A stretch of 64,000 nucleotides of DNA from Branchiostoma lanceolatum (lineage: Eukaryota; Chordata; Leptocardii; Amphioxiformes; Branchiostomatidae), in contig NC_089736.1 in NCBI RefSeq assembly GCF_035083965.1, positions 9,758,207 to 9,822,206 on the forward strand. The letters run 5' to 3'. The position numbers and the translations under genes are program-made. Positions 4,700-47,159 of the stretch are shown one piece after another; the stretch's first letter is position 1, and every line of letters begins with the position of its first letter. The notes under the pieces are model-generated. The model worked only from the letters and a program-made list of their open reading frames with translations. It had not been told where the DNA came from and searched no databases.

Positions 4700-5027
4700 G
4701 TTTTAGGAAGAAAGGCAGACAAACAAAAACTACCGCATCGCCGTTGCTACCGAACGTTCGAGAACCCGTCGAATCAGCGTTCGAACGAACGGTCACGTGA
4801 CGGGTGACGTCACAGAGGGGTCATTGTTCGCGAATAACCTCTCTGTGGTTTGTTTATTTCTGTTGAGAACGTGGATACGCACATCGTTCTATGGACGAAC
4901 TAACGTTCTCTCGCAACGGTTAATCTTGAAAATGATGCCGGAGATGTAAACTCGGCGTTATTCCTTGTGAACTTGAGAAAACATCATCGTTTCACTCCTT
5001 CCAAGCGAAAATTCGTTGATTTAAAAG
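4700..5027. promoter_or_regulatory. Bidirectional promoter between the ankyrin-TM gene and the giant MYND gene
   Basis: Only 328 bp separate the two divergent start codons. The interval holds a palindromic E-box context TCACGTGA (4793-4800) and, 4 bp further, a perfect CRE palindrome TGACGTCA (4805-4812). I see no TATA box at a sensible spacing. Divergent sharing is inferred from the distance. Confidence 0.6.
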
Positions 5028-8000
5028 ATGGCGATGGCAGGAGGAGACGCGGCCACTTCGTGCCAGTGCGAGATTCACGTCAACTGGGCGAAATGGTACA
5101 AGGGCTTCATGCACCAGGTTTTCCTTCACACCAAAATGGAAATGAAAAAGGTTCTCGACAGAAAGAAAACCACCGAAGTCAGGGAACCGGACGGCGAGCT
5201 CTCAATCACCGTACTGGTAAGTCAGACCAACTCTCGTATCCAGTTCACCATGGATTTAGCCAAAGAAGCAAAAGAGCTGAAGAAAGCTAACATACACGAT
5301 TTACAAGAGCTTAAGAAGAGGATTGTTCAAGTGATTAAGTACAAGATACGAGCTTTCCATCATCAGGAGTTTTATGACGTTGCTCCGATGTTAGTCCCCA
5401 AAATCATGGCTGAAGGGAAGGGACGATCGCTTGAAAGCATCGTTGATTTCGCAAACTTTAGCTTGGGCAACATCCCGGGCACGAAGGTGGCCATCATGCA
5501 GCGTCCTCTAGCGGAAGGAAAGATAACTGCACTCAAGAAGGTTCTCTTCGACAAATGGGGTTTGACTGGAAAGCTAGCATTCCTGTTGGCTTCGTACAAC
5601 ATGTACCGTTTGTGGACGAAGGGGGAAAAGCAGTTCGGACTGGACGATCTGTTCGAGACCGTTAAAGCTGGCGTGTACAAAGTCAAACTGGAGGAAAAGG
5701 ACAAATCACTGACCGCTGCTACCCTGTTCACCATGGCCAAGTTCATGGACGATCTGGACGTAGACGGTGACCTTGTGATTGTGATCCCTGTCCCCTCAGT
5801 TCTATTGGTTACCGGGTCGCGCAACTACGATGGCCTGTGTTACATGGGACAGCATGTGCTTTCCCTGACTAGAAATGGTGGTTCGGCTAGAAATAAGGAC
5901 GTCATCACTACGAAGGCCGTAAGGCTCGCGTACGCAAGCGAATGGAAAACGCACGACCCGATCTACACGTTGTATCGGCCGCTACTGCCGAAAGGAGAGG
6001 GTTCGGTTCCGGAGAATGCCGAACAGTTGCAGATTCTGACCGACGGGTTGTCGAGGCGTGCTCGGGCGACCAAGCTTGCTGCTGCGAACGCAACGGCGAG
6101 CGCTTCGGCAAGAGAAACTCCAGTGGCTCAAGCTGATGATGGATCTTCACAGAATAACCTTCCGCCACCACCGCCTTCCTCGCCAAGGTGCACGGAAAAA
6201 ACGACACAGCAGACCACCACCACTACTCGGCTAGAGGAAGTTCGGAAGGAATTAGTCGAGCTTCGTCGGGCAGATGCGTGCAGTCCAAAACCTACGGAAA
6301 AACTACGGCGTTCCTCTGCGACTGTGAATAAAAACAAACCGGATACAGTTTTACCTGAAACGCAACAAGTTACTCAGAAGAAAACACAACAAGCGACTCA
6401 GAAGGAAACACAACACGTATACGTAACTCAGAGGCAACCACAAGTGACAAAGAAGGAAACACAACAAGTGACTCAGAAGGAAACACAACAAGTGACTCAG
6501 AAGGAAACACAAGCGATTCAGAAGGAAACTCAAGTGACTCAGAAGGAAACTCAAGACGTGACTCAGAAGCAAATACAAGAGACTCAGAAGGAACCACAAC
6601 AGGTGACTCAGAGGCAACCACAAGTTACTCAGAAGGAAACACAACAAGTGACACAGAAGGAAACACAGCAAGTAAATCAGAAGGAAACACAAGTGACTCA
6701 GAAGGAAACGCAACACGTGACTCAGACGGAAACACAAGAAGTGATTCAGAAGGAAACACAGCAAGTGACTCAGAAGGAAACACAGCAAGTGACTCAGAAG
6801 GAAACACAGCAAGTAACTCAGAGGGAAACACAGCAAGTGACTCAAAAGGAAACACAGCAAGTGACTCAAAAAGCAACACAACAAGTGACTCAGAAGGAAA
6901 CACAGCAAGTGACTCAGAAGGAAACACAGCAAGTGACACAGAAGGGAACACAGCAAGTGACACAGAAGGAAACACAGCAGGTGACACAGAAGGAAACAGA
7001 AGTGACTCAGAGACAAACACAACAAGAGACTAAGAATCAAACACAACAAGTGACTCAGAAAGTCAATCAGGACCAAACACAACATGTGACTCAGAACGGA
7101 AGTGTACTGCAAAAGGTGGATGCTCAATGTTCTGTGCCCTCAGCAATCAAAACGCAGATCACGACAAAGGCGGAAACCAAAGTGACTGAGAACAACACTC
7201 CCGTAAACTCTACAAAAGCGCCACCTGGCGAAGTTGCAAAGGGAATGACTCGAGTTCAACAAAAACATAATGGCGGCGACATTGCTGTCAAGCAGGTCAC
7301 AGATCAGTGTGACGTCAGACTGACTAGCCAATCATCAATGGAAATGACCACGCCCCGGTCAGTGTCTACTACAAGCGCATTAAGCAAGACAGTTGACCGC
7401 ACAGTACACACAATTGCGACTCCTAGCGGAACTATAGCGTCGAAGGTGACAACAAACGCTGCTATCACCATCAGTTCGCCTCACCCTTGTTGCTCATTTA
7501 CAATTCCAATAAGTATATCAACTGCAAATCTACAGCTTCTACCTGCAGCAAAAGTCACCACTCAAGTCGCGACAACAGTTGCACGCTCAAAGACGTCAAC
7601 ATCGTCCATTTCAGTGTGTGGAATTAAGGCGCCAGCCTCTACCTCTGAAGGACCTGCTACGGTGAAGTCCGAGGAACCACCCCAACTCTCACACGGATTG
7701 GCTGAGCCAGCTGAAGAGCAAACGCAACAGCCAATGAAAAGACCTGTTCCAAAACAGATAACTGATTTGTGTTCAACATTGAGAAAACAGGTCCTTGCCA
7801 CACAAGAGACTCTGAGAGCTGCACAAGAGCTCGTGCAATTAGAGGAAAATACTGGAAAGCAAGACCACATAGAGAACACTGCTACGCTATTAGTGGACAG
7901 CCAACGCAACGCAAAGTGTGGTTTTCAAGAAAGTTCGGCGACACAAAAGCCCGTGCTGTCTTCCAAGAATGTACAACAATCCCCCAAAACTATATCTGTC

Positions 8001-11000
8001 ACCAGCTCTGACACATTTTCTGACGTCACTTGTGGTGTTTCTGAACCAGCATCGCTCAAGCCACAGCGGACCAATGAAATGATGGCTACGATAAAGTCCG
8101 TGACGTCATCTGCTGGAAAGGTTGCTCCGAAACCAACATCAGCCGCTCGTCCGAATCCAGACCTGTCTACGCCGGAGTCATTTGCACAGGCACAGCTAGA
8201 CACTTCAAAGACTACGATCTGCTCTCAGATCAATTCCACGGCAGTTACATCTACTGCACATTCTTCTGTACCTGCGAATACATTACCAACCTCGCAAGTA
8301 CCTGAAAAGATCGTTCCGTCAACACAGTTGCAGACTGCACCTGTCAAACCAGCTGTTTCAACCCAGTTGTCTCGAAGCGATGCCAAGAGAGTGACGTCAG
8401 CTCAGGTGCAAAATGTACCAGACAAAACAGATGTGTCTACCCAGGTGCTGCCAACAGCTGTTAAACCATTGATGACGTCTACCCAGGTGCAACAACCAGC
8501 CGTAAAATCGGCTTTTTCAACTCAGATGCAAGCTACAGCTGTGACGCCATTCCAGATGCAAGGTGCTGTAGCAAAGTCACCTGGGGGTGGCCATGTCGAA
8601 TCAACATCTGCCAAGAAACAAGTTTCGTCTCCGGAGCAACTGGCAGCTCTGAAGACCGCCGCGGATTCTCATATGCCACTTGCGGCTGACAAAACCACCA
8701 AGCCTTTCCAAGTTAAGCCTTCAAGTGTCCAAATAACAAGTATGTCTCAGTCGGTGGCCCATAAACAGGTGCCACCTTTGCAAGTGCAGACTTTAATTCC
8801 AAATGCAAGTACTGCATCACAGATGCAACCAGCAGCTGCCAAACCTGTGACTCCCACAACGAAGCAGACAGTGCCCGACGCCATTGCACCAGCTGGTAGG
8901 ATGTCTGCGGTGCTGACACCTGCAAATTCGTCTGCCATCCAGTCTACCGCCGTCCAACAAATGACGTCAGCTCAGACAAGGAGTCTAGCTTCCAAAGCGG
9001 TGACGTCGACAAAAATGGCGTCTTCTGCTTCCTCTCCCTCTCGTCCTATGACGTCATCTCAGACAGAAGCTATGGCCGTTAGACCACTGATGCCTGACCA
9101 GATGCAGACGACAGATTCAAAGCAAGACACTCCTTCCCGTCTTCAGTCTACCGTGCCGAAGTCGTTATCTTGTTCAGTTCTTTCAGCATGTTCTAACACT
9201 ATGACATCGCTTCAGGCGAAGTCAACAGCGATATATACAGTGGGTTCCATGTCTGAGAAACAAAACAAAGCCCCTCATGCGCAGCTAGCGCTAGTGGCGC
9301 TTAAGGCAAAAACGTCATTCACAGAAACTGATGACGCAACACGTGGACAAGTGACGTCAGCACAAACGCCATCCATATCTCCCAAACCTACAACGCTGAC
9401 ACAACCTCAGTCAGAGTGCAACAGAATGGCGGCCTCTATTCCTCTACAAAAAACAGTCATCCAACAGAGAGTGAAACAGGTTGGCCCACCTGCTTTACCA
9501 TCTGAGCCTAGCCTATCTTTTACAGGGAAAGGTGTCCCGTCTATCAAATCAAGCTCAAAAGTCGCGGCAGCATCTGAAGTAACGGCGCGGAAAGATGTAC
9601 AGATGCCAAAGCAAAATATGGCCAGTCAACAAGCAGCTACGACACTGCCCACTACGACTAAACAGCCAATGAGAGACGCGGTTACTCCCGGCTCTCAGGA
9701 TGCTGACGTCACGGAGAAATGTCCCAAAACGTCTCCGGGAAAGAAGTTGTATGTTAAGATGGTGCCTTATGTCGCACCACCTCCAAGGGGCTTGAAAGGA
9801 CCAACGTTAGAGATGTTGACGGTCTCAGAGAAACAGCAGCATGCGCAATCAGAAGTTCCAACAACAACACCAACAACTACATCTGACACATCCATGACTC
9901 CCTTGGCTTTCGGTGACAAAAAAACATTTGCTGGACCACCTTCGCCATCTACTTTTGCTGAAGAAGAAAGTAAAGCTACAATTTTGACTAAGACAGCGTC
10001 CCAAAATGACAATACGGTGTCATCCAAGCAGCAACATGTAGTCTTCACACCAGAGGCGTCGCCAAAAACATCAGCACCTCATGCAGTTCCAATGTCAACC
10101 GCTACAGTAGAACCGGCGCCACAACAGTCTCTGGGCAAGAATTTTAAAGCTGGAAAAGACACTTCAAACAAGCCTGAAGGCAACGTGTGCGGATCGCTAC
10201 AACAACTTCAACATGACAAACACGACGCCATAAATGCACTTTCTCCTGAGCCAGCGAGGAACGTTCTTTCGGTCAAGATGGTACCGTACAAACCTCCCGC
10301 GAAACACGACATGACGAGTCAACCAGCGCCACCTGGCGAAGATCTTGAGAGCAACAATGAGAAGTGTCAGCCCTTCGCTGAGGCCGAAAAGGCCAAACAG
10401 CAGCAACCAAAACAAGCTGTGCCTACCTTGAAATCTGATGATGATCAGGCTCAGAATGGAACGGCTGAGGGCACAAAAAATCCAGATACTCCAAAAGTCG
10501 CAAGTAAGACAGAGTCTCTAAATCCAAATGCGCAGACATTCAAAAGCAAAACCACATTGAACATGGCCCCCGTTGTGACTTCAACGCCAACGTTTGTCGC
10601 CGCAGTGACAGAAACGTCCGATAGCACAGCTCAAGTTGCATCGGAAAGCATCCCTCCACAGATTCAGCACCAGGAACAACAGACCATCCAGCAACGCCCT
10701 CAAGCGGTGTACCCTGGTACTACCAATAGAAACGGCCTGGACCTTTCTGAGGGGGTCAGAGTTAAAGAACAAGCGCAGATGGACAACCTCCAAATGCCCT
10801 ACAGAAACACCTCACAGACTACTCCACAAATTCAGTACCAAGGCCAGCAGACCGCCCAGCAACGCCCTCAAGCGGTTTACCCTGGTATTACCAATGGAAA
10901 CGTACTGGACCATTCTGAGGGGGTCAGAGCTAAAGAACAAGCACAGATAGACAACCACCAAATGCCTTACAGAAACACCTCGCATGACACTTCACAGATT

Positions 11001-13730
11001 CAGCACCAAGGACAGCAGGCCGTCCAGCAACCCCCTCAAGCGGTTTACCCTGGTATTACCAATAGAAACGGACTGGACCATTCTGAGGGGGTCAGAGCTA
11101 AAGAACAAGTGTATATAGACAACCGTCAAATGCAGTACGGAAACACCTCGCAGTACCAAACTCCAGCCGACGTGCTACCGAATCAGAGCTGGCTTAACCA
11201 TGGTGAACAACAACAGGCTCATCAGCCAACCTGGGACAGAGATGATTACCCGGATGCAGCTCGTCCCCAGGAACATCCGAGTACGCAAAGAGCAGCAGAA
11301 AGGGGCCAAACGACCAAGGAGAAACTGGCAAGCGCCTTCAAACCTCTTGCCGACAAATTCCAACAGTTCAAACGGTGGCGGAAGAATAAGAATCAGCACA
11401 AAGAGGAGCCATATATCACTGAAAGTTACGACTTAGGACACCAGGTTCAAGAAGGCATGGGAGATGTTGTCAGCCATATTGGTCACTGGCAGGATTATGA
11501 AGGGAATTTACAGTATCATGGACAGGTGAATGGCTATGATATGCCCCCAGCGGACCAACAGGGTATTGCACAAGACTGGACCTACGAACAAAGGCAATGG
11601 TACCAAGAGCAAGCACGTTTACGTGACATGCACAGAGAGCAGTTTGGCGTTACGGATTCTAATGGTCCTGTCCAAATGTCCGGTCCGGCGTACACTGGTC
11701 AAGGCTGGAATGACAACAGCCACTATGGACAACGCAATGTGGTCAACCCAGTTGTCAAGACAAAGACAACACACCATCAAGCGCCACAACAGCAGCAGTG
11801 GTCCGAAAATGCGCCACCTAACGACAACCAAAGGTACGGCAACCCAGAAAGGTCAGGCACCGCCTCCCAGCAACATGTAAACGGCTACCATGCCCCTGTG
11901 GATGGTAACCCTTTTAACAAGGCCACCTGGCGGAACTACAGGAGTAGAAATGCCAGCGAGCCTAATCGTAGTCACATACAAAACACTACGGCCCAACGGT
12001 ACGAGAGAATGAGTCAGAATTCCAACCAGCAAGACATGCCAGCAAGAGATGCACAGAGGCCGAACGCGCGTTCGGGAGATGCCGGAGTACGTCGGAGCGT
12101 CAGCTTCTCGCGATCGGGGCCGAGAGCTCACGGAAGGACGCCGAAGGGCAGTTTGGCTGTCAACGCTGACGAGTCTGTACAGCAGCCGGAAATGCAGACA
12201 TGGATCGGTGGAGGGAGGGTGGCGAACCTTCCCACGGGAACCAAACCGCCCAGATACTACAGGAACAGAGTCAACTCGCACTCATACGCGCAAAATCGTC
12301 CCTACCACCAGACACAGGCAAGGCCTGTGGAAGAAAGCAAACCTAAACCATCTCCTCCAAAACCGCCAGCAAAGAGGTATAAACCTAACACTCAACCCGA
12401 GAAGGGGAGAAAGAACACACTGACAAAGGGTTCTCACCCCCGACAAGCAAATACCACAGCACCTTTACGAGATAAAAACCAAGAGAGGCACACTGTCGAG
12501 AAAAGGCAAGAGAATACTCGAAACCTGGATCCAAACACTCGACCGAAAACGCCTAATCCAAAACACGACACACCCAATCAAGAGAACACTACCAAGCCAG
12601 AAGAGACAGAAGGTGAAACGAATGAGGAAGAAGTGAACGAGGAAGAGGAGAGGAAAGCTCTGAAAGCTCGGCGGAGGCTGCTGACCCGAAAGCCGTCTGA
12701 CGCTCAGAAGAGCCGCCCGACCAAGATCCCGCGGATCCCAGTCTTCTTGGGGGCAATAGAAGCAGGTACACACGTGTTTAAAGTTTTTTTATAACTCAAA
12801 TAATAATCCAAGTCAAATGAATCACTCACCAAATTTTCGACCGTACTCATTTGTTTTCATAATTACTTAAACTCACTTTTATGGAGTGCACTGACCTTTG
12901 GAGTGTGTGACGTCACAAGTAGGTCAAAGGTGCCCAGAAGTCGATACCTGCCGCCGTCCCGGTCCAACGTGTAGACTTATTTGTTGCATAGACGAGGGAG
13001 GTTATGTTTTTACTAGCGTTTGTTTTAATTTTTTGTCTGGTCTCTATATTGTCGTTGGTGTTGGCCATATCAGCCATGTATTGTCATCAATCGTCATGTA
13101 TCATATTTCTCTTTCTCACCTGCGGCGTCTGACAGGTGTGCGTGAGGAGGCGTGGAACAGGGCACTAGTGACGGCCGAGGAGGATCCCGTGGGGACGAGT
13201 CTGTGCGTGCAGCTCTGCTTCTACTGTGGAGTGGTCGGGTCGTGGAACGAGGACGTAGTGCTCAAGAAATGCAGCACGTCAGTACAGTTTTGTTGCTGCT
13301 ATCTTCGTGAATTCGCCAAGGTCATGTTTTCGGTAGCGATTGTGCTATAACAGCATGACGCCCTCTGATGCTTATCTTTGGTACTGCAGCAGATAATTTC
13401 GATTTCCCTTTTTGTATCTCATGTTATGGGCATGCTATGGTCATAAGTTTGGGTGGTAGGCAGTTCATATGCATGAGCTTGGACATAAATGGTTGAGCTT
13501 CCTGGCGCTTTACAACGGAATGGCAGGTGCATTTTTGTTGGGGAGTTTATCATTTCATTTGGTTGTATTTTTACCATTGTAACTTTAAGTTACTATTTAT
13601 CTCGATCAGGTGTGGCACAGCGAGTTACTGTTCCAGAAAGTGCCAGTGGAACCACTGGAACCAGCACAAGTCCAGGTGCAGGGGCCTGACTACAGACCAC
13701 CAGAAGTTCAAGGTCATCATCCAGCTGTAG
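5028..13730 (+). CDS. Giant protein with unrecognised N-terminal domain, repeat-rich middle and C-terminal MYND zinc finger (2,666 aa)
   Basis: There are three coding exons: 5028-12765, 13136-13277 and 13610-13730. Phases 1 and 2 join cleanly (GAAGCAG|gtacac; AGCAC|gtcagt; the following acceptors end in cag). Residues 1 to about 340 form a folded-looking, Lys-rich domain with motifs IVIPVPSVLLVTGSRNYDG (about 246-264) and EGSVPENAEQL (about 324-334). Both recur in the minus-strand gene at 28.6-32.4 kb. Residues about 445-690 are degenerate 8-residue VTQKETQQ repeats. Residues about 1879-2041 hold three 56-residue repeats. The rest is Ser/Thr/Gln/Pro-rich and probably disordered. The C-terminus is a MYND finger: LCFYCG, KKCSTCG, SYCSRKCQ and HKSRC, ending ..VIIQL. 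MYND fingers bind short proline-containing peptides, so a scaffold role is inferred; catalytic function is not indicated. The ATG at 5028 opens the conserved domain. No named orthologue is recognised. Confidence 0.85.
6355..7100 (+). repeat. Coding tandem repeat, VTQKETQQ octads
   Basis: A 24-bp (8-codon) unit, with frequent 21-bp variants, is repeated roughly thirty times inside the giant exon. Many codon differences leave the protein unit almost unchanged, so selection or gene conversion is likely keeping the reading frame. The period and Gln/Thr/Lys/Glu composition suggest a flexible or helical polar spacer. The opposite strand is also open here, as a Leu/Ser-rich artefact. Confidence 0.9.
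10662..11151 (+). repeat. Three tandem coding repeats of 168 bp (56 aa)
   Basis: Units start at 10662, 10830 and 10998; the last is slightly shorter. Each contains PQAVYPG, SEGVR.KEQ and the NTS ending. Nucleotide identity between units is high, so the duplication is recent relative to the surrounding sequence. This is internal to the giant MYND gene. Confidence 0.9.
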
Positions 13731-21243: not shown

Positions 21244-24200
21244 ATGCCACCGAAGAAGAAGGGAGAAGAGCCAAAACCACCCCCACTGATCGGGAGAGTT
21301 GGTACATCCCTGAAAGTGGGCATTGTGGGATTGCCCAATGTTGGGTTAGTATTACATCAAACTGACACTAAAATGAAGTGCATTCAAATTTCATTTAATG
21401 TACATTATATATTATATACATACTTTGTCATATGGTGGACTTCTGTAGCAAAGTCTGACCATTTCAGGAATGCTCTTCACAGGGCTGACTCCAGGCCCCG
21501 ACCTGGGACAGAAATTTGCTTGTTGGGATGGACACAAAGTTCCCACAATCTGTTCAAAAATCTGGACTTCATGAAAGGAAAAAGACGAATATGTATTTTG
21601 ATATTTACTTAAAAGGGCAGATTTAACAAGGAAAATGAACCACATGGGCTTCCGAACAATGAGTGTGATGGAAAAAATGTAAAGCTGGAGACAGCCCTGG
21701 TTCTTCATGAGTTTTAAATGGATACAACATACACGTATCTTTCAAATGTATTTCTTGGTAAAGGTTTTGCCATAATGCCATCACATGTACAAAATATAAA
21801 TGTACATGTATAACATGTAAAAAAACATGATTTTTTCTTCCCTTCTGCCAACAGCAAGTCAACTTTCTTCAACGTGCTGACAAAGAGTCAGGCGTCGGCG
21901 GAGAACTTCCCCTTCTGTACTATAGGTCAGTGACCCCAACTAAAATTACATACATTAACCAAGATAACTGTTACATTTTTGGAAAAAGAACAAGGCTGTA
22001 ATTAAAATGAGTGTGCAGAATGATGATTTTCTTGGTATTTATGTTAGGATGTATGTTAGGATATGTGTATCAAAGATAAACACATCAAAAGCACTAGTCA
22101 TGTCAGGCAAAGTTATCTTGAACCAGTTAAACAAAGCTCTGCATCAGATGACACGGGAAAATGATTTCACTTTGCCTTGTGCATATTCTATTTTTTGTTT
22201 TTCATGTTGGAAATACCTCCTGATATCCAGACCCCAATGAGAGTAAGTACATTTCATATCTATTCTGTATGTCTAAAATAAACTCTTTATATTATCTTCG
22301 ATCTAAAAGGTACAATTTTTCAAAAACTAAGAACTACATTAAGTTGCAATTTTTTTAATGATATGTCTGAAGTATTACATAAGAAGATTTTTGTCGTGCT
22401 TTTATGATAAAGCTTGTTTCTTTTCAAGTTATGTTGACTATGTATGTGCAAAGCCCATATTCTTGAAATTTGGATCATGGTATCATACCAATGTTTATCA
22501 GTCCAGCAATGGTCTCAACTGGAAGTTCACAAATGGGCTTGATATTTTTGGAATAACACAATGCTATGTTCTGTTTCAGGTAGGGTACCTGTACCTGATG
22601 ACAGATGGAAATGGTTGTGTGAGTTCCACAAGCCAGCAAGGTACTATACTAGTTCAGAATTACATTTTCCATATTAAGTACTGTATACAGACAGATATTT
22701 TGTGTACATCAGTAGATCAAAACATATACAGGGCTTCAGATTACATAGAATAGCTCAAAGATTGACTGGATTTTCACTATTTGGAATCATGTCTTTCTCT
22801 TTTTATTTTTCCAGCAAAGTGCCAGCCTTCCTGTTGGTGACGGACATAGCCGGGCTGGTTAGGGGCGCACACGAAGGTCAAGGGTTAGGGAACGCCTTCC
22901 TGTCGCACATCAAAGCAACGGACGCCATCTTCCACATGACAAGTGAGAACTATTTTCTGGGATTATTTTATGTAGAGCAGTATTTTAGCATGTCATTCTT
23001 AGTATGAAAATATACCTCCACCCTGAGGTGTTGCCAAAAAACATGATACATTTTTGTACATATAGGGTTAATGAGGTCTATACGGTGTGATAAGGCATGG
23101 TCGTATCTATAACCACCGAATAAAGTGCCGAGGTCGCGAAGCGAAATAATGCTCATTAGATTTATACCTTTTGGCGACACCTCATGAATAGCTGATTCTG
23201 TAACATTTGTGTAACACAAACATTTGATGGCAGAGAAATCATTATAGACCTAGTTACACCTTACAAGTTCATAAAATCACAGTAAGAGGGCACCCTCCCC
23301 TCCATATGGTTTGTGTTATTCAATGCCCTGTCTTCATCCCAAAACAAAAGGAGCTTTTGAAGACGAGGACATTGTTCACGTGGATGGCGAAGTAGACCCC
23401 GTCCGCGACTTGGAAACTATCTGGGAGGAACTCCGCATGAAAGATCTGGAGTACCTCAATGCCGCCGTTACCAAACTGGAGAAAACCAGCAAACAAACCA
23501 AGAACCTAAGGCCCGAGTATGTAAGTATTAACAGCCTTGTATTCTCTCCGTAAAAGGAGCATTCGAAGATGACGATGTAACGCATGTCGAGGGAGACGTC
23601 AATCCCGTTCGCGACATGGAAATCATCCATGACGAGTTGAGAATGAAGGATATCGAATACGCGGCGTCGCAAGTCTCCAAGATGGAGAAGACCTGCATTC
23701 GCGGGGGAAATAAACAACAGAGGCCGGAATACGTGAGTACTGTAAAACTGCTAATTTTTGTTGTACTCTTCTGGAGCAGAAAACTTTGGTTTTTGTGCTG
23801 GACTTTCTGTTCCTGTTTGGTTTGCTACTGTCTTTCTGTGAGGTGCAGTTCTTTTCTTTGTCAAAAGAGGGAGCTTCCTTGTCAGGACAAACAGAAATTC
23901 AAACTGTAGCACAGACAGTCATGAAGAGACATAAAAATTATGCTTTTTACAGTATTCAGTGTTCTTTTGATTTTGCAATATAGTCGTTTTATATAAAGAT
24001 GTGTGAAGTTGCCAACTTGTGTGTTTTACTATTTTGCGACACCTCGGGATCAAAAATATTTTACAGTTTGATTCTAAGCTGTTATCATGATGAATTGGTG
24101 TTTTGTCCCTGTTTTTTCCAGGATTGCTTACTAAAAGTTCAAACTCTCTTAACGGAGGAGAAGAAACCTGTCCGCTTTGTGGAATGGAATGCTCAAGAGG

Positions 24201-26588
24201 TAAGCTACATTCTCTCTGTCTTTTTTTTAGTTTGTGTGTGTGTGTGCATGCGCGTGTGTGTGTGCATGTGAGTGCGTGTTTCTGTGTGTGTGCGTGCTCG
24301 TGTGTGTGTGCGTGTGTGTGTTTGTGTGCCATGCAGGCTTAGTGTTCCTGTTTTTAGTGGGACTGGAAGGGTTTCAAAGCAGTATGGGTAAGGGGTTGAA
24401 GTCTGCCCTCTCTGACTGCCTTGTTTGTCTACTTCCAGATCGAGATCCTGAACAAACATCTCCTCATCACCTCCAAGCCGATGATCTACCTGATTAACCT
24501 GTCGGAGAAGGATTACATCCGCAAGAAAAACAAGTGGTGAGGCTGAGTATGGCTCTCAATTCGTAGACACCTATGTTGGGAGTCAACAATACATGTCCAA
24601 AAGGAATAATTATACAGATATGCTGAGAGTCAACACTATATGTCTCCCAAATATGAATATATTAAAGTTTATAACTTTAAGGTTTCAGTAGCCCTTCTAG
24701 AGAGTAATTATGTAGGTTCTACTTCCCACCGCTAGGTGGCGCTGCAGTGAGAAGAATGCAGTCCCAAATGTGACTAAGCTTGTATCCCCCCTCATCATGG
24801 TTCATGATTGGAGTCAATTTTTAATACAAGCTTGATTCTTTCTGGCAGTGCAGCCTATATCCAGTTATTATTGTTCTGAAGAAAGTAACAATTATAAACA
24901 ATTTAATGATTATGGCATTCAATTCCCTATTGGTTACAGGAGTTAGGCAGTAGGGAGAAGGTTTAAAGCACATGTACTAGTTTACATCAATAGGTACATT
25001 TTTTCTTTCTTTCAGGCTTGTGAAGATGAAGCAGTGGATAGATGAGCACGACAAGGGTGCGCGGGCGATCCCGTTCAGCGCAGCCTTCGAGCTGAAAATG
25101 CTGGAAATGGAGACGGACGAAGAACGAGAGAAGTACGCAAAGGAAGTGGGCGCAACAAGGTTTGTATTCATCAGTATGCCTTTTCTAATGATGTATTCTT
25201 TTAAAAAATTAGATGTTTACATGTAAACATCTAATTTTTTAAAAGAAATTCGTTAAGCAGAAATTACTACACTTTCTGTACGTACAAATGTTCCTAGTGC
25301 TTTACCTATGAATGTAAGATCATAGCAAATAGAGTACCATTGTAAAGTTAATAAATAAGCTTTCCAATTATATGTATGAAGTAACAACAGGGATAGAATC
25401 TACTGAAATCAACTTTAAAAACCATACCAACGATTTTGAAATTGTCAAGAAAAAACAGCCAGCAATAGCAAGTCCTTTACATTTTTAGGACATATACATG
25501 TACCGTTACATAAACCACAAAAGAGCCTTTATGAGAATGTTGTTTTATAGAGTCCTAAAAGGTGATATGGACTTCCATATTTATTAAAATGTCCACACAA
25601 TTTCTACAGTGTCCTGGACAAGATTGTCGTGGATGGATTCAAGGCCCTCAACCTGGAGTATTTCTTCACCTGTGGGCCTGATGAGGTGAAGGCCTGGGTC
25701 ATCCAGAAGGGCACCAAGGCCCCCCAGGCGGCCGGCAGGATCCATAGTGACATGGAGAAGGGGTTCATCATGGCCGATGTCATGAAGTTTGCAGACTTCA
25801 AGGAGGAGGGGTCAGAAGCAGCAGTCAAGGTCAGACAGCATGGAGCTAGAATTACTTTGTTTCAAAGCAATAAGTGATCATGTGATTGAATTTTCAACTG
25901 TGTTCCTCACACTACCAACTGGATTTGGGGTTAAATGGACATTTCGAGGATCCTCACCCCATTTTACCTCGACCCAAGGAGTTAAAAGTCGGTTAAAATG
26001 AGTGACTTTTCCTTCCTTTTCACCCCCCATTTTGCATGAGGACCCCCAAAACTTCTTTTAAACCCCAAATCCATTTGGTAGTGTCAGAGGATATTGGAGT
26101 TTTCTTTTACATAACCAGTAGTCCAAATGGTAGATAACCTACTTCACATGACCTTATAGGGGCTCAGGTTTAGGGTTTTTTTACCGATCCAAGGTGATTT
26201 TCTGGTCCAGTACCAGTCCAGTGTACCCACTCCTACTAACAGTCCAAAAGAAAGTTATCTGAGAATTCGGTCAGGACTGAAACTGGCACGGCATTCAGTT
26301 ACTGGGCATACAACCATACCCATACCCAATTTGGTCAAGACTGACCCTAGCAAAGCATTCAGATTCACCAAACATACACTTACATGTACTTCTAGTTATC
26401 AATACATAGGATGAAGTCCATGTGCTTTCAGTTACATGTTCATTCAATGACGTTGTTCTTATCTGTTTTCAAATCTCCAGTCCGCAGGCAAATACAGGCA
26501 ACAGGGGAGGAATTACATCGTTGAAGACGGTGACATCATCTTCTTCAAGTTCAACCCTCCGACACAAGGTGGCAAGAAGGCAAAGTAG
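21244..26588 (+). CDS. OLA1: Obg-like ATPase 1 (396 or 398 aa depending on the alternative exon)
   Basis: Exons are 21244-21344, 21855-21925, 22231-22242, 22580-22640, 22815-22942, [23351-23520 or 23557-23732], 24122-24199, 24439-24536, 25016-25159, 25610-25829 and 26481-26588. All phases join and the length matches human OLA1 (396 aa). The P-loop GLPNVGKST is split by intron 1. Switch II is [10 protein letters not shown]. The G4 motif reads [10 protein letters not shown], i.e. NLSE in place of NKxD, the hallmark that turns this Obg-family member into an ATP-preferring enzyme. A TGS-like region follows ([20 protein letters not shown]) and the end is [12 protein letters not shown]. Known role: a cytosolic ATPase linked to stress responses and translation. 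Start: [18 protein letters not shown], as in other animals. Two alternative versions of the exon after switch II are present. Confidence 0.95.
21480..21699. mobile_element. hAT-like MITE, copy 1 (OLA1 intron 1)
   Basis: The left end CAGGGCTGACTCCAGG and the right end CTGGAGACAGCCCTG are inverted. Flanks are gctcttca (21472-21479) and gttcttca (21700-21707), an 8-bp duplication with one mismatch. CAGGG termini plus an 8-bp TSD are typical of hAT elements. A second copy lies at 61270-61472. There is no transposase. Confidence 0.75.
22231..22242 (+). other. OLA1: 12-nt microexon of OLA1
   Basis: It lies between acceptor gatatccag and donor gtaagt. The 12 bases supply the last two bases of Asp, then Pro-Asn-Glu, then the first base of the next codon. 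Without it the conserved IDPNESRVPVPD stretch of OLA1 cannot be completed, and phase (1 in, 1 out) is kept. Confidence 0.85.
23351..23520 (+). other. OLA1: OLA1 alternative exon A (170 nt)
   Basis: It encodes [20 protein letters not shown] through KNLRPEY. The acceptor is aaaacaaaag (weak pyrimidine tract) and the donor is TAT|gtaagt. Entry phase 1 and exit phase 0 are identical to the next exon. It is the more diverged version: the segment after KLEK is shorter (KTSKQTKN), losing the RGG motif that human OLA1 has. Confidence 0.85.
23557..23732 (+). other. OLA1: OLA1 alternative exon B (176 nt)
   Basis: It encodes [20 protein letters not shown] through QQRPEY and includes CIRGGNK. It is closer to human OLA1 than exon A (FEDDDITHVEG, VRGGDKK). 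The acceptor follows a good pyrimidine tract (tattctctccgtaaaag) and the donor is TAC|gtgagt. Only 36 nt separate it from exon A. Joining A to B directly would shift the frame and reach a stop after seven codons. Confidence 0.9.
24228..24333. repeat. (TG)n microsatellite, OLA1 intron
   Basis: Imperfect TG/GC dinucleotide runs lie just after the exon ending at 24199. The open frames here on both strands are low-complexity artefacts. Confidence 0.95.
25196..25247. repeat. Perfect 52-bp palindrome in an OLA1 intron
   Basis: The two arms (TTCTTTTAAAAAATTAGATG then TTTACA) meet without a spacer at 25221/25222 and match at every position over 26 bp. It is AT-rich with no other sequence between the arms. 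Confidence 0.95.
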
Positions 26589-26679
26589 GGATCCAACTCC
26601 AGATGCTTCTCCACCCTAAAACAGCAATGGTTTAGCCCAAACATGCTCCCCACACTACAAGCTCAAAGTCCTGTTTGTA

Positions 26680-26685
26680 AATAAA
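26680..26685 (+). terminator. OLA1: OLA1 poly(A) signal (proximal)
   Basis: AATAAA lies 92 bp after the stop at 26586-26588. A second AATAAA at 27300-27305 (ccgtcAATAAAcagagtcc) sits in TG-rich context and is a likely distal site, so alternative 3' UTRs are possible. Confidence 0.6.
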
Positions 26686-28630
26686 TGCTACTGATTCTAG
26701 TTTTAAGTGTCAAACGGAATACAAAATGGGACTTCACTCAATGCATCAAGGAAGTAAATAATGTAGTTGCACCAAACATAAACCTAAAAAAATCCTTGAA
26801 TTGTTTGATAACATTTGGCAGATATGTTCATTTTCCAAGTAGCTAAATGGACATTTTCACCAAAACGTCTGGCATAGTTTGGTTGTAATTCAAATAGAAG
26901 AAATTTTGATTGACCTCACACAAACTGCAAATGCTCAAAGTAAAATAAAGATCATGTCCAGAACACACAATAAAGACAAGGTATTTCTACCAGTTTGCCC
27001 AAAGGCTATGGGATGAAAAAGCAACAAGGCATAAAACTGCTACCAGTTATTTTAAGTAAAAGCCCAGGGATGTAAAGTTGTTGCCCTATGAGTGACTACT
27101 TTGCATCGTTATGTTTGGCTACTTTGGCCCCAGTGATTTCATTTCAGTACAGATATTTTCTTGGCTGCTTCGGTAATTGTTCTAGATATTTCAACTGTAA
27201 GAACAATACTGTTGTCTTGAAATAGCTCATTATGTACAAAATTTGCTACTTTTGATTTCTTCTGCTGCTTCCCTACGTGTTGTTGCTTGTTGTGCCGTCA
27301 ATAAACAGAGTCCACTCAAACTTCTGATGTTGAATTTTTAATTTGTGTGGATTGTTTGAAATCTTCGAGACAGATTTGTTACCATAAATGACTTATTAGG
27401 ATTTTAGCAGGCTATTTCTCTGCTCTAGTTTGCTAGATACTTTTATTCTAATTGTTTTGTTCTGTTTTCTCTGTGTTTTCTGTGTTTTGTTCTGGAAGAA
27501 AATCTGGCTAGCAGATGATGTCTCCCTCCAACGTTGGATGGTTCACCAACAACTAAACAGAACACAACCATCGTAGAGTGAAACTTACTGCCACCAAGTA
27601 GCATCCTAACTAGCGTTAGTTGTGCAGAATGTGCAGAAGTTAAAGGTGACAGGTCGCTCTTTTATAACCAGCTGCTACCATGCCGCATGCCTGCAAAGTT
27701 GGTATATTTCGCCGAAGGGTGGTTATACCGGCTATATAGATACAGAAGCTGCTGTGTTACGTCAAAGGTTGGTCATACCGGCTATATAGATACAGACATA
27801 GATAAAACCAATAAGCAACATCTACTGGCAGTGTTATCTTTGAGCACAATGTCATGCTCCTTGCATGGTTGAATGTAGAAGTTTCTTTCCTAGAATTCTG
27901 CTCTTTAAAGTACCATGTAAATTGTAAACCTTTTTTTCTATCTCTCTCCAGAAAAACTTAGTAGCCTTTCATTTTCTCCTACACTTACCGAGGCTTGTAA
28001 AAGCTCTTGCTTCAGTGTGTAAAACTTTTTACTACTGTGGAATGGAATGTTTGCAGACTCCACCCCTGTGGTGTTGCCAAAATGAGCATGTGCCACTTTC
28101 ATATCCTAAAGCAATTATGGCAGGACTAGAGATGGGGAAAACTAAGGAACTATGGCATATGAACATTAACAATCTCAAGACTGGTGGATTTTTCACATGT
28201 TTATTGATACAAATAGACATAAAATGTGTTTGCATCATCATGGTATGTTGACATTTCTGTTCTGTCATTACATACATGTTGACTTTGAATATTGGGTTTT
28301 GATAATTTTGGGATGTAACATTGGTTAACAATGTCTGGTTGGCCCACTTTTCATAAAGGTACTACATGCAGTAGAAGTCCCAAACTTTCTGGTAGCACGG
28401 CAAATGGTGGTTGGTACTGTGAATTTAAGGGGATTGTTGGTGGTGTTTAAAGTTCCAGCACTACTTTTGACAGCAAATCTGAATTCTGGTGTGATGATAA
28501 GTCACCACGAAAAATATAACACCTCCACAAGAAGAAAGCAGTACATTTAAGACTGTGCATGTGAAGCGTAGGTTCTGAGGAGCCAAATGGGGGAGGGGGG
28601 CACAACAAGTGTGGTCTACAATATGGTTGA
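26686..28630. other. OLA1 3' UTR and intergenic sequence before the convergent MYND gene
   Basis: I see no exon here on either strand. It contains the distal OLA1 poly(A) signal (27300-27305) and a short tandem duplication, in which GGCTATATAGATACAGA occurs at 27730 and again at 27780, about 50 bp apart. The rest is AT-rich and unremarkable. Confidence 0.6.
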
Positions 28631-31600
28631 CTACAGTTGTATGTAGACAGCAAACTTGTCCTTGTTACAGAGAAGGGTCTGACACTTGGGCCTGTGTTGT
28701 CGTCGGTGTTTCTTTTGACAAGCCCTGCAGAAAAGAAAACATGACAATCAGAGATGGCAAACTTCACCCATTTACGTGTTCATGACGTTTTTATCCACAC
28801 TGTTTGACGATCAGGAAAACAGACTAATCCCAAAACAATACTTCAGTCCTTTGCTTTGTTTAATAGCTAAAAAGTTTATTTTGTGTTATCAAAATGTCTT
28901 AATTGAAACAGATCACTTATGCAATGACACAAAGTGTGTGTCACTGTTCCGCACATTGATTATGATACATTCCATGCACACAAACGCGTTCAAAGTTTGC
29001 TAACTGTCCATGACCTTAGTGCTGAAATGACATCCATGCCGGTGTAACGGCCCATTCTATACCCCTGCCCATCATAATCCCAGGTATAATCTAGACTATA
29101 CTCTGGATTGTTATGCAGTAGCCAATTTCACAGTCGTATCGTCACCTACCGTGAACAGTATATGGCGACTCCACAGCCGTTGCATCGCCGAAGTCTTGTT
29201 GCGCCCCCTGGCGATGTTAGGGCACCGCACAGGAAGCACAGCTTCGCACACAGCGTCGTCTTGATCGGCCTCTCTTCGGCAATTTCCGACGCAATCCTCG
29301 CAGCTTCTTCGGTCACGCCCGCTTCCTTCGCCGAGAGAAACACCGGTATCTTCGTGGACCTCTTCCTCTTCGCCGTTTTTACTTTTTTGGGCGCCGCCAC
29401 TTTCGTTTTCTCATTTTTGGCAACGCCACCACCTCCCCTTGCTCCTCCATGAGTTTCGACCCGCCCGGTCAAGTCTTGACCCAGACGTTGGACCTTGGTT
29501 TTCTCACTTTTAGTAGGTTGTAAGAATAGATCAGTTCCACCCGTTGCACCTTCATCGAGAAGTGCGTTCTTTACTGACGGCCATTTTGTTGCTAGGGACG
29601 CCGCAATCGACTCGGACAACGGTTGATCGGTGGAGACGACTCCGCCATTTTGAGAGTCGGCTATCTTCCGTATCGGAGGGAATTCAAAAATTCCTTGTGC
29701 ATTTCTCTTGTGGGCATTATAACTTTTCTCTTGGCAAGAATCTGAACGTACAGTAGGCGAGAGACGGTTCATTTTATTTACCGCATTGGAGAACGGAGGC
29801 ACGTCAGGGTTGTGGTCTATGCGGTAACGCCTCTGCGTGTTGCCCGTGCCGTTCAGCAACTGGCCCCGCTTGTCTTCGCCACACATAACGTCACCCTTGC
29901 CTTCTAAACAGTGTTGTCTCTCCCGGCTCATATCTCCTTTATTAGCGGAGCGGGGGATGTTAGGATCGTGCTCAATGCGGTTACGCTTCTGCCTGTTCCC
30001 CATACTGTCGAACAGCTGGCCCCGCTTGTCTTCACTGTACACCACGTCAACGTTACCATCGAGGTCGTATCGGATCTCCCAACTCGTACTCCCCGCAGAA
30101 GGTCCACCGGACGCCGTCGGCAACTTCGTGACATCCACGGTGGAAGGTGGTCGCGGCGGCTCAGAGATGTTAGGGGTTGTGAACGGCGAAGATTGAGTGT
30201 TTTGCATGATTGAAGCGTCGTGGGGATCTAGTTCCTCCGGTATGCCGACCGGGAGGTCGGACACACTCTGGGTGTCTTCGTGTTTGAGCCCGAAGAAGGA
30301 CATGACTTGTGCCTTGACCTTCTTACCGGACAGTGTTTTTCCTAGCCAAGACTTCCAGCCGGATGCGCTGCCATCCTCCCTCTCATTGGTCGAAGACTGT
30401 GACGTGTTTTCACCATCATTTCTGCCTAGAGCGCCATTTGAAAAGCTCGTGTTCTCTTGGACAAAAGGTAGCACCGAAACGTTATTGATGGATTTGATGG
30501 AGCCTACACTATTTCTCTCCATACCTATACTAGGAGGTGTTTCTCTCTCCACCCGACTTCGTGCTCGGCCCCTCCCCGGCACGGGGGTGGAACAACATCG
30601 CTTCAGCCATGACGTCACCGTCGCGTCTTCCTCGCTACTGAGGCTAGAGTCCAGGGTCTCCCCGCTAGCGCTCTGGTTGCTCTCGTCGGAATCGTTCAGC
30701 TCTCTAGGTATCGGCGGGACGACCGCCACAGAAAGAGGCGGGCCACGGCGGGACGCATAGGCGTGCCCTTGGTTCGCACTAGCCATGTTCTCGAAAGCCT
30801 GGATATGTTTCGCGACCCCGACTCTTTCTTTAGTACCTTCAACAAAGCAGTCATTAGCATCAGTTTGGACCGGGGTATCATTCTGACCACTTGTTAAATC
30901 AGTGATGGACTTGCTCCTGTCTTCACAACTGGTTGTATGTGCTTGCTGCAGATGCGGATACAGATCAGCAACTCGGTTGTTTGTTACTTCATTTTTCTCA
31001 GGATTTCGAGTAGAGTCAAGATTCACTGTGCATCCATTGATGGCGTCACTTGCGTCATAATATTCTTCTGACGACTGTCTTGTCTTCTCTGCTCCGTCAG
31101 AGGACGCTCCTTTATTCTTAGAATTTTGCTCCAAATATTTGATGGCTTTCTTCATCAAAGCTTGAGTGTTATCGTCTGGTACAAGTTCCTCTAGCTCTTC
31201 CAGTGCTGTCTGTACTGCTTTAATGTCCTCAGGGGGAATGAATTCGTCTGTCTGGTACGAACGGGCAATCATCCGTCTAACGTCATTATGTAGTTTTGCT
31301 TTCTGTTGTTCGAGTTCTTGCATTTCTTGGTGCGTTGTTTTCAAGTCGATCAACATTTCAGCATCCGAAATCTCATCGGTTGTGTCAACTTCGCTATCCT
31401 CTTCTTTTACCTCATTTGTTGACGAAATATTTCCGTCGTTTTCCCGTCGAATATTCTCCAAAGCGTCGGAAAGCAGATCCAACTGTTCGGCATTTTCCGG
31501 AACCGAACCCTCTTCTGACGTCACGTTCGGGCGGTACAACCGGAAACGCTGTGATTTCTCTCCTTTCTCATCCACGAATTCAGTCATCCGCATGGCCTTT

Positions 31601-32439
31601 GTGGTGATAACTTCCGGGTCATCCACAAAACGGAGCATCTCTTTGCCTACGTAGCACAGCCCCCCGTAGTTTTTTGAGGTGGTCAGAAGAAAAACGGTTG
31701 GGACGGGAAGAACAACGACTAGGTCACCTTCTCCTTTCGGCTTCGGCATATCTTCGGCCCCCTCTAGCTCTTTGTACCATTTGTGAAACGTGTACAGCAG
31801 CCCACACGCAAGATCAGCAGGCGTCATCCTCGACATTAGCACACCTTCCTCCTGTTCCTCAAACTTGAGCCAGTTTGCCGTCACCATGTTGGCGTACGCC
31901 ACCACCGAGAGGCTCTCGCCACTGCAAGTCCAGCGCGAAACGTCGCTGATTTTCAGTCGAGGATCCTGCGACCCTTCCGGCCTTCGTACCTGCATTCCGA
32001 GCAGCAGTTTGAGATCTGCATCTATCCAGTCCGTCTCAACATAGAATATCTTCGTATTGAGTTTGCACATAGGAATGATGTACGGGTAGATATAAGGGTG
32101 TGACGTATAGAAGTCTGAGTGAACCAAAGGTCTCAGATAGGGCGCCACGGCCTGTTCGATCTTCTTTCTTCGCGTCTTGTCGCCGAATAGATTCTCCTTG
32201 TAGCACTGCGTGCATATATCTTGTAGAGAAAGGTTAACCACTATCCTGGTGTTTGAGATTCTGACCATCAGTCCGATGCGGGGATCGGTGACTTTGGTTA
32301 TGGTAAATCCTCTCTTGTTGGCCTCAGCTATGTGCTTGAGCTTCAACTTGACCGCTGAAGTTGCCTGATCCAGGAAATTGGCGATGTACTGTTTCTTGGG
32401 GCGTACATCGGTTTTTCCCGGACCCTGCTCACTTGCCAT
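28631..32439 (-). CDS. Paralogous N-domain plus MYND zinc-finger protein (2 coding exons, 1,127 aa)
   Basis: Coding exons are 32439-29150 (donor TTCACG|gtaggt) and 28724-28631 (acceptor ttctgcag); phase 2 joins. The N-terminal domain (about 1-330) shares VVLPVPTVFLLTTSKNYGG, GLCYVGKE, DPEVITTKAMR and EGSVPENAEQL with the giant gene at 5-13.7 kb. The middle is Ser/Glu/Asn-rich and probably disordered. The C-terminal module is STKIPVFLSAKEAGVTEEA, then MYND ligands LCFLCG, RRCNGCG, YCSRACQ and QHRPKC, ending VYIQL. The start at 32439 (MASEQGPGK) opens the conserved domain; a frame 53 codons longer upstream reads through an apparent UTR acceptor (tttcatttcag) and is rejected. A likely noncoding first exon ends near 32963 (AAAG|gtatgt). 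Role unknown; peptide binding through MYND is the only family-based hint. Confidence 0.85.
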
Positions 32440-33351
32440 ATTTGGTAAAATCGCCCAGAATAAAGGGGGCCGTAACTGTGGTAACGAGACTGAAATGAAA
32501 ATCGGTGTTATTGTGATGTGATGTAATCTACTCTCCTTTGTTACGCACAATAGATACATGTACAACACAAAGCAATACAGCGTTGAAAAATGAGGCATAC
32601 TTTCACAGTAAAATTAATCTTTCTGTTTTCATACCAAGTCTTGTAACTGCTCTGTTTCGCTTTGTTAAAAATGGAAAGAAGCATGTATTAGATCAAATAT
32701 TTACTACAAGAAGGCAGTACTACATATAAGCATATGGGTGAACACAGATCAGCACCAAGGACAGGAGTTGTTCATTATGAGTACACGTTTAAAGAGACGT
32801 ATATTTACAAGTGAATGTAAGGCGCGCACTGTTTACGTTCGCTTGAAAGAAAATCAGTACCAAGGACGGGTCTATTCATCCCAATGCACTGTGCACAACG
32901 TACCATAGCCTTGATTGTAATTTCAACTTAGGTAATGTAACGGTAAAACTTTTTATTACATACCTTTTACGTTGCCGTTGCCGTACACACCGTAGACTGT
33001 AGTACAAGCTACCCTCGTGGACGAACAACAACAACAGCGTGCTGTTTATTTGTTTGCGCTTCTGTTGCTATGGAGCATCGTAACGGAAGGTTGTTCCAAG
33101 CTAAGGGTACATGACGCGGGTTTGTTTTACACTGTTCTAGAACAAAGGAGGTGGGGTTTGTGACGTTCTTAGTTACATTTGTATGTTTTAGACGAAACAA
33201 GGCGAAGTGAAATTCGTTGCGCGATGGTTGTCGTAGGACTCGGTTGTCGTTAGTGAGGCTATAACATTAACCGAACTGGCCGTCAATAATGATCTCAACC
33301 GCAATGTAACAGTCACTCAAGCAACTGGATAAAACTTTGAACCAGTCTGAT

Positions 33352-46034: not shown

Positions 46035-47159
46035 CTATACATAAAGAATATAGGAAGGTAACGCCATGCTTAACTGTTACGACGCAATGCATTCTTACAT
46101 AAATAAACGTTTCTGTTGGGTCCAGCAAATAGTTCTGTCAATAACTAGTGCTTTTATGACATAAAACCTTAACATACTTACCTGAATCGCACATATAGTG
46201 CGAAAGTTATACTCACACTACCGTTGCTTTAGTTGCTTCCTTCACTACGATTCTTAATGGAGTGAAACTGTCAGACAGTCATCTTCATTGAGGCGTTGTT
46301 CATTGGACACACTGTGACCAATCAAATCGTTGTTTCCATGGGAACCGTCATGACGTGGACGTCTCATCTTCAGGACGACAATTCCTGTTGTAGCTACAAA
46401 GAGAACATTACAACTAGTCGATACAAAACGATGTTGTAACTTTTAACATTCTATGAAACATTTTAAAAACGAGTAATTTTGTACAGTGTGGGTCCAGCAT
46501 ATCGGTTTAGGAGTAGTTCGCACGGTATTTTGTAAATACTTACCTTTTAAAGGCATCCAGAGCATTTTATGTGGCTTGAAAATTGGAAATATTCTAGTTG
46601 CTGTAATCTTTATGAAATTGTCATTTAATGCCACTGTTTACCACATTTGCGTGATGATTACATGTCACAAGCACTCAAAAGCCACGCGAAAATAAGCTAC
46701 ACAATGACCCCTTTAGTTTCACGCGCCTAGTGTAATTAGATTGAAACAGAACTCAAAACGGTTTTTTCGTCGGTAATGGACCGTTCCCGTCGAACACCAT
46801 ATAGAACCCCCTGTTCTATTTGGAACACCTCCGTCAAAAACAGCGCTAGTGGGACAGAAATGACAAGCAGAAATGACAATGCATATCTGGGACAGATATC
46901 TCACTGCATTGGCTACATGATCGTACATGAATACCCAAGAAAAAAACGAAATGAAAAAGAAAATATCTCGGGCACTCAAGGGGACGGAGCTTACGTAACA
47001 CATTGCCAACTACTACCAAGTCCGTCTCTCATGTACTTGTGCGTTATTCCTGTGTTCGACTGTAACGGTCAGTTCTCTGCAAGTTCCGGCGACGGGACGT
47101 CACGTTCCAAGAAGTCGGAAAATTTGAGAACAAAAACGGCGGCGCTGACAGCGCTTGGA

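What the first reader, a model, noticed from the sequence alone, without database searches (positions are those of the whole stretch)
23351..23732. Tandem, mutually exclusive exons inside OLA1
Two versions of the same exon (170 and 176 nt) lie 36 nt apart, both in phase 1 to 0. They encode alternative forms of the FEDDD..VRD..MKD.EY..RPEY segment that follows switch II. A 36-nt gap is too short for an ordinary animal intron, and joining both would shift the frame to a stop within seven codons, so mutually exclusive use is expected. Exon B keeps the RGG seen in human OLA1; exon A replaces it. OLA1 is normally a single conserved housekeeping protein, so two isoforms differing in the ATPase region would be unexpected.
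Basis: partly seen in the sequence, partly recalled or inferred. Interest (0 to 1): 0.82.

Follow-up and report, generated by a model that had tools for sequence, protein, structure and literature searches.

The report
Lancelet OLA1 with two swappable exons
In a lancelet, the gene for the housekeeping ATPase OLA1 carries two alternative versions of one exon so close together that only one can go into each message, so the animal probably makes two OLA1 proteins that differ in one helical arm.

Summary
OLA1 (21244-26588, +) has two homologous exons, A (23351-23520, 170 nt) and B (23557-23732, 176 nt), 36 nt apart, both phase 1 to 0. Joining both, skipping both or retaining the spacer breaks the frame. 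They share 34 of 57 residues; differences pile up at third codon positions (40 against 16 and 10), so protein-level selection has acted. Isoform A equals the first 396 of 399 residues of a protein named 'obg-like ATPase 1 isoform X2 [Branchiostoma lanceolatum]'. The spacer holds one branch-point-like motif, 11 nt from exon A's donor, far under the roughly 50 nt steric limit, so A-to-B splicing should be blocked.

The exons do not encode the nucleotide-binding motifs. They encode the first arm and tip of the helical hairpin domain. B keeps the tip RGG; A has KQT there and is two residues shorter. Of 167 other OLA1 proteins, only a bryozoan's shares that shortening, and it keeps an R.

This is a new case of a known kind: sterically enforced mutually exclusive exons, a splicing type already reported in lancelet G-alpha genes. 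No transcripts or second lancelet genome could be examined, so use of B, tissue pattern and functional difference remain open.

The parts
21244..26588 (+). OLA1 coding region; 11 coding exons per message, one of them A or B; isoform A 396 aa, isoform B 398 aa
   Evidence: exon-by-exon model with consistent phases; isoform A equals residues 1-396 of P0001; Pfam PF01926 and PF06071 in P0001
22815..22942 (+). upstream shared exon 5 (donor at 22943)
23351..23520 (+). alternative exon A (57 codons with the split codon; no RGG tip)
   Evidence: present in P0001
23521..23556 (+). 36-nt spacer between A donor and B acceptor; holds an in-frame stop when retained
23526..23532 (+). TATTAAC, holding the only yUnAy motif between 23400 and 23556; predicted branch A at 23531, position +11 from the A donor and 26 nt from the B 3' splice site
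   Evidence: heptamer itself not rare in the window (8 found, 9.2 expected)
23557..23732 (+). alternative exon B (59 codons with the split codon; keeps RGG)
24122..24199 (+). downstream shared exon 7
23726..23965 (+). predicted hairpin that takes in the B donor; role unproven
   Evidence: z -6.28 for 23720-23970; donor about as accessible as donors 1 and 8
27499..27511 (+). coding part of exon 12, which accounts for the C-terminus of P0001 (KAKKSG in place of KAK)

Best explanation
One OLA1 exon was duplicated in tandem. The two copies are now spliced as a mutually exclusive pair, giving two full-length OLA1 proteins that share the nucleotide-binding and TGS parts and differ in the first arm and tip of the helical hairpin domain. 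Exclusivity is enforced in two layers. First (inferred), the branch site for exon B lies inside the 36-nt spacer, 11 nt from exon A's donor, so the spliceosome cannot assemble across the spacer. Second (shown by translation), a message with both exons, neither exon or the retained spacer is out of frame or stopped and would be expected to be destroyed or to encode a truncated protein. B keeps the family-typical tip (RGG); A has a two-residue-shorter tip without it. The likely effect is a change in what the hairpin tip contacts (ribosome, eIF2 or other partners), not in ATP binding; this last step is inference.
For: Coordinates, phases, splice ends and frame logic. Third-position excess 40 against 16 and 10 over 57 codons, chi-square p 1.1e-5, and no stop in either copy. 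Of 22 columns at least 90% conserved in 167 other OLA1 proteins, B keeps 22 and A 19; two of A's three losses are the R and G of the tip, the third is E to D. A lancelet database protein labelled isoform X2 carries exon A exactly. Branch-motif position against the published limit of about 50 nt (PMC7969005 and PMC5740500, passages). All 9 other acceptors of exons 2-11 end in CAG, while A and B both end in AAAAG. Models place the exon over helix 141-171 plus turn 172-174 in isoform A, against helix 140-172 plus turn 173-175 in a hemichordate OLA1 with RGG.
Against: No read, EST or proteomic evidence was available for either junction; isoform X1 was not seen and might differ from X2 elsewhere, for example at the C-terminus. 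The branch site is predicted from a motif that is common by chance. The effect on protein function is untested. One lancelet sequence plus the matching database protein was all there was, so conservation of the pair is unknown. A and B did not pair in either segment tree (0% of 200 bootstrap trees in each). Exact RGG is present in only 89 of 167 other proteins (R followed by G in 153), so the tip is not rigidly fixed in the family.
Confidence: 0.84

Rival explanations
1. One copy (most likely A) is a decaying or unused duplicate and only the other makes protein.
For: A is somewhat more diverged: median identity to 167 other OLA1 proteins 58% against 61% for B, and it lacks the R-G tip. Its branch in the second tree is long (0.75 against 0.32).
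Against: A is intact, keeps 19 of 22 highly conserved columns, has an AG acceptor and a GTAAGT donor, and is the exon in a database isoform. If either is unused, B is the one without a direct record here, yet B is the family-typical one.
Confidence: 0.07
2. The 36-nt spacer is spliced as an ultra-short intron and the A+B message is a regulated non-productive (NMD) product that tunes OLA1 level.
For: The spacer has a GTAAGT donor, an AG acceptor and a branch-like motif; A+B gives an early stop.
Against: It is shorter than the 43, 49 and 56-nt introns shown to splice in human (PMC4463651, passages), and the motif lies 11 nt from the donor. It would not explain why both exons keep coding constraint as complete alternatives.
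Confidence: 0.05
3. RNA structure in the flanking introns decides which exon is used: a hairpin covering the B donor hides it so that A is taken unless the hairpin is opened. (This could act on top of the best explanation.)
For: 23720-23970 folds at -88.4 kcal/mol, z -6.28, 0 of 200 shuffles as stable, and the hairpin persists in a fold of the whole 1179-nt interval.
Against: The stretch was chosen after seeing the inverted repeat. 11 of 510 grid windows reach z -6. The B donor's mean unpaired probability (0.12) is not special: donors 1 and 8 have 0.07 and 0.13, and 10% of 60 random GT sites are as low. No second species to test conservation.
Confidence: 0.12
4. The exon duplication is very old (before the chordates) and A is a relic lost elsewhere, not a lancelet invention.
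For: A and B are no closer to each other (60%) than to many other animals. The first tree separated them, A falling with a long-branched, unnamed database row, P0054 (starred 100/85); the second also kept them apart. A bryozoan OLA1, P0128, shares A's two-residue shortening and scores nearer to A than to B.
Against: Long-branch artefact is likely: with ten rows removed and three segments added, one lancelet clade was not rejected (p-AU 0.369). A and B share two residues rare elsewhere (M of RMKD, R of RPEY); 64 of 4062 control pairs share as many. P0128 keeps an R at the tip and has 30 identities with each exon, so its shortening looks independent.
Confidence: 0.12

Closest known systems
Mutually exclusive exons of cephalochordate G-alpha genes (preGNAI exon 6, preGNAQ exon 5; PMC5896119, section 41 read)
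   Same: Lancelet nucleotide switches with a single duplicated exon; raised substitution rate on the branch to one copy; the exons lie in protein-contact regions.
   Different: Different gene family; found in two species there; gap length and branch position are not discussed in the section read.
OGDH exons 4a/4b (PMC7969005, abstract and passages) and alpha-tropomyosin exons (a title in that paper's reference list; otherwise recalled)
   Same: Exclusivity enforced by a branch site too close to the upstream exon's donor.
   Different: In OGDH branch points were mapped, 25-41 nt from the donor in human; here the site is predicted, at 11 nt, in a 36-nt spacer.
Human mutually exclusive exon clusters with steric interference (PMC5740500, passages)
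   Same: Donor-to-branch distance under 50 nt, frame-breaking joint inclusion.
   Different: The term OLA1 does not occur in the main text of that paper.
OLA1 / YchF family (human 2OHF, rice 5EE0)
   Same: Fold, P-loop, DIAGL, NLSE, helical domain, TGS domain.
   Different: Isoform A has no R-G at the hairpin tip and is two residues shorter there.

Membership tests
Mutually exclusive exon pair | Adjacent homologous exons with the same phases | tested here: met
   34 of 57 identical residues, phase 1 to 0 in both
Mutually exclusive exon pair | Joint inclusion and joint skipping are non-productive | tested here: met
   A+B stops after 7 codons, neither shifts the frame
Mutually exclusive exon pair | Both copies under coding constraint | tested here: met
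   third-position excess, p 1.1e-5; A keeps 19 and B 22 of 22 conserved columns
Mutually exclusive exon pair | Junction reads for each exon and none joining them | not testable with these tools
   no RNA data; one database isoform with A seen
Mutually exclusive exon pair | Pair conserved in related species | not testable with these tools
   no other lancelet-like protein among the 224 held; next-best flank identity 77%
Steric (branch-site) type of mutual exclusion | Donor-to-branch distance under about 50 nt | tested here: inconclusive
   11 nt by motif; the branch site is not mapped, though any branch site inside the 36-nt spacer is under 50 nt
RNA-structure (docking/selector) type | Conserved competing intronic pairings | tested here: inconclusive
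   inverted repeats exist but no second species; accessibility not special
OLA1/YchF ATPase | MMR_HSR1 G domain, YchF C-terminal domain, NLSE in place of NKxD, matching fold | tested here: met
   PF01926 and PF06071 above cut-off; NLSE in the translation; 2ohf TM 0.95 by target length

The most novel reading that the evidence does not exclude
Cephalochordates run a splice-controlled switch between two OLA1 proteins: the canonical one with an RGG hairpin tip and a second with a shortened, RGG-less tip that contacts the ribosome or eIF2 differently, so a translation and stress regulator usually treated as single-form in animals has a tissue- or stage-specific second mode.
Probability: 0.3. Interest if true: 0.62.

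Novelty: new member of a known kind. Interest (0 to 1): 0.44.

Why it matters
OLA1/YchF is near-universal, and a 2021 review says that the exact roles of its helical and TGS domains are unknown (PMC8779481, passage). A natural isoform pair that swaps one arm and the tip of the helical domain, with the rest constant, offers a ready-made experiment on its role. The locus is also a compact candidate for branch-site-enforced mutual exclusion.

Tried and rejected
Own-genome search: none is held. A plasmid search with the exon region found nothing, as expected. My first gene model started exon 4 three bases late and lost one serine; one search corrected it, without change of frame. Pollicipes OLA1 (P0131, 554 aa) at first looked like a second joined pair; its two copies are identical over 158 residues, so I read it as an assembly or model artefact; P0132 (Acipenser) and P0134 (Toxocara) show repeated stretches elsewhere (by eye). 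Dating the duplication by tree failed. The idea that the B donor is specially hidden by a hairpin was not upheld by the accessibility control. The two acceptor tracts are alike by shuffling (119 of 5000 shuffles as good), but several pairs of other acceptors of the gene score higher, so I make nothing of it. The repeats around 23025, 23173 and 24035 looked like a docking/selector set, but one lies downstream of both exons and pairing there would loop out both; I think they are mobile-element debris (inference).

Rows dropped before counts: one search used 167 of the 223 non-lancelet proteins held (length 385-420 aa; P0131, P0132, P0134, P0193 left out). One search dereplicated these to 100. 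One search dropped ten rows (nine flagged as long, plus P0055), dereplicated harder and added three segments, 66 rows in all.

Results against a simple reading: by BLOSUM score 124 of 129 non-lancelet proteins of the two regional searches are nearer to B, but by plain identity 58 of 167 are nearer to A; B's advantage is mainly the tip.

Full report
What is there. The window holds a lancelet OLA1 gene on the + strand. I rebuilt it exon by exon: coding exons 21244-21344, 21855-21925, 22231-22242, 22580-22640, 22815-22942, then A 23351-23520 or B 23557-23732, then 24122-24199, 24439-24536, 25016-25159, 25610-25829 and 26481-26588. Isoform A is 396 aa, isoform B 398 aa; 373 of 398 positions are identical. 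A protein search restricted to exon A found P0001, named by its source 'obg-like ATPase 1 isoform X2 [Branchiostoma lanceolatum]', 100% identical in that segment; isoform A equals its first 396 of 399 residues. P0001 ends KAKKSG where the unspliced reading ends KAK; a further exon at 27499 accounts for the difference.

The pair. A and B are homologous: 34 of 57 aligned residues identical, alignment score 177 against a shuffled mean of -15 and maximum of 22 in 2000 shuffles. Differences by codon position are 16, 10 and 40 (chi-square p 1.1e-5), and 21 of the 34 shared residues use different codons. The duplication is therefore old, and protein-level selection has acted since. Both exons run phase 1 to 0. 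Using both gives seven new codons and a stop; using neither shifts the frame; retaining the spacer meets a stop in it.

Why only one at a time. The spacer is 36 nt. Human introns of 43, 49 and 56 nt are reported to splice (PMC4463651, passages); 36 nt is below these. Scanning 23400-23556 for yUnAy found one site, TTAAC inside TATTAAC, whose A (23531) is at position +11 from the A donor and 26 nt from the B acceptor. The heptamer is not rare (8 in the window, 9.2 expected), so the argument rests on position: any branch site in this spacer is inside the about 50 nt limit used for steric mutual exclusion (PMC7969005 and PMC5740500, passages). In human OGDH the sites lie 25-41 nt from the donor (PMC7969005, passage). 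Both A and B acceptors end in AAAAG, whereas all nine other acceptors of exons 2-11 end in CAG; the exon-12 acceptor, also alternative, ends in AAG. These steps are inferred from sequence; no branch site or junction was observed.

What differs in the protein. A model of P0001 (mean pLDDT 85) places exon A (residues 125-181) over the end of a strand, the loop after it, helix 141-171, the turn 172-174 and the start of the next helix. A hemichordate OLA1 with RGG (P0070; mean pLDDT 80) has helix 140-172 and turn 173-175, the R closing the helix and the glycines in the turn. So the exon encodes the first arm and the tip of the helical hairpin domain (residues 141-199 in rice OsYchF1 by PMC12480156, passages). 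The P-loop, DIAGL and NLSE motifs are encoded by shared exons. Foldseek's 15 best matches are YchF/OLA1 structures, human 2ohf with TM 0.95 by target length. Isoform B itself was not folded.

Comparison with other OLA1 proteins. In an alignment with 167 others, the tip R is present in all but 4, R followed by G in 153 and exact RGG in 89. A's shortening (both glycine columns empty) occurs in 1, the bryozoan P0128, which keeps an R. Of 22 columns at least 90% conserved, B keeps 22 and A 19, the losses being E to D, the R and a G. Median identity to the others is 58% for A and 61% for B, with shared flanks at 73%; the baseline for this segment in 7953 other pairs of like flank identity is 66%. 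By per-row medians A is 6th and B 26th from the bottom of 162 rows, ties counted and both lancelet rows included, so both copies, A more so, are diverged. By BLOSUM score 124 of 129 are nearer to B; by identity 58 of 167 are nearer to A. No second lancelet cluster appeared in the three protein searches (and 79 proteins listed, best 120 of 3646, itself limited to the 7994 candidates sharing most words); the next-best flank identity is 77%. Because the database is clustered at 90% and the isoforms are 94% alike, isoform B would sit unseen inside P0001's cluster of 11 members, and the same could hide pairs in other species.

Age. A 102-row segment tree put A with a long-branched row and apart from B (0% of 200 bootstrap trees with the two together). 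After removal of long rows the free tree still kept them apart (again 0%), but one lancelet clade was not rejected (p-AU 0.369). Two residues shared by A and B are rare elsewhere, a level reached by 64 of 4062 control pairs. I favour a duplication in the lancelet lineage with faster change in A, as reported for lancelet G-alpha exons (PMC5896119, section 41 read), but the data do not settle it.

Regulation. The interval 23720-23970 folds into a long hairpin that takes in the B donor (z -6.28) and persists in the 1179-nt fold. Controls weaken it: 11 of 510 grid windows in this sequence reach z -6, and the donor's accessibility is matched by donors 1 and 8. I leave it as an untested lead.

Print record. 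No held paper contains both 'OLA1' and 'mutually exclusive exons'. Of 6 papers with 'Obg-like ATPase' and 'mutually exclusive' 4 were listed; in passages of one of them, on C. elegans OLA-1, the phrase is used for something else. OLA1, YchF and 'alternative splicing' together gave 2 papers, not opened. Papers with lancelet or Branchiostoma and 'mutually exclusive exons' numbered 1 and 8, none with OLA1 in its title (listings, plus passages of PMC5703972). The library lacks most subscription journals. The label 'isoform X2' implies at least one more annotated isoform for this species, so the annotation may already hold the pair without comment.

Verdict. A well-built mutually exclusive exon pair in a gene not known to me to have one; a new member of a known kind, of moderate interest because the swapped part belongs to a poorly understood domain of a near-universal translation ATPase.

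Noticed in passing
5025-12794 (+) and 29146-32613 (-): Two very long open frames (2589 and 1155 aa) flank OLA1 and are related to each other (103 of 352 identical over their N-terminal parts, E 1e-26), with no Pfam match; the first carries QVTQKET-type repeats. A pair of uncharacterised paralogues.
   Followed up: partly
26584-27511: Alternative C-terminus of OLA1: splicing at 26584 to an exon at 27499 gives the end of P0001 (KAKKSG) where read-through ends KAK.
   Followed up: partly
23025-23035, 23162-23183, 24024-24045: Inverted and direct copies of a GGCGACACCTC-type repeat in the introns on both sides of the pair; 8 matches in the window with up to one mismatch against 0.5 expected, four of them at 40.9-45.6 kb. 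Perhaps mobile-element debris plus unrelated coding matches.
   Followed up: partly
P0131, P0132, P0134 (database proteins): OLA1 models of Pollicipes, Acipenser and Toxocara contain repeated internal stretches (158 identical residues in P0131), probably assembly or annotation artefacts.
   Followed up: partly
39000-46200 (-): Array of EGF-like exons, many pairs 70-91% alike (hEGF in the one frame tested), interrupted by an 88-copy AAGG repeat (43906-44258).
   Followed up: no
57437-58540 (-): Vanin/biotinidase-like open frame (Vanin_C and CN_hydrolase).
   Followed up: no
P0128 (Bugula neritina OLA1): A bryozoan OLA1 lacks the two glycines of the hairpin tip but keeps an R, the same shortening as exon A, and is one of 5 of 129 proteins scoring nearer to exon A than to B.
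   Followed up: partly
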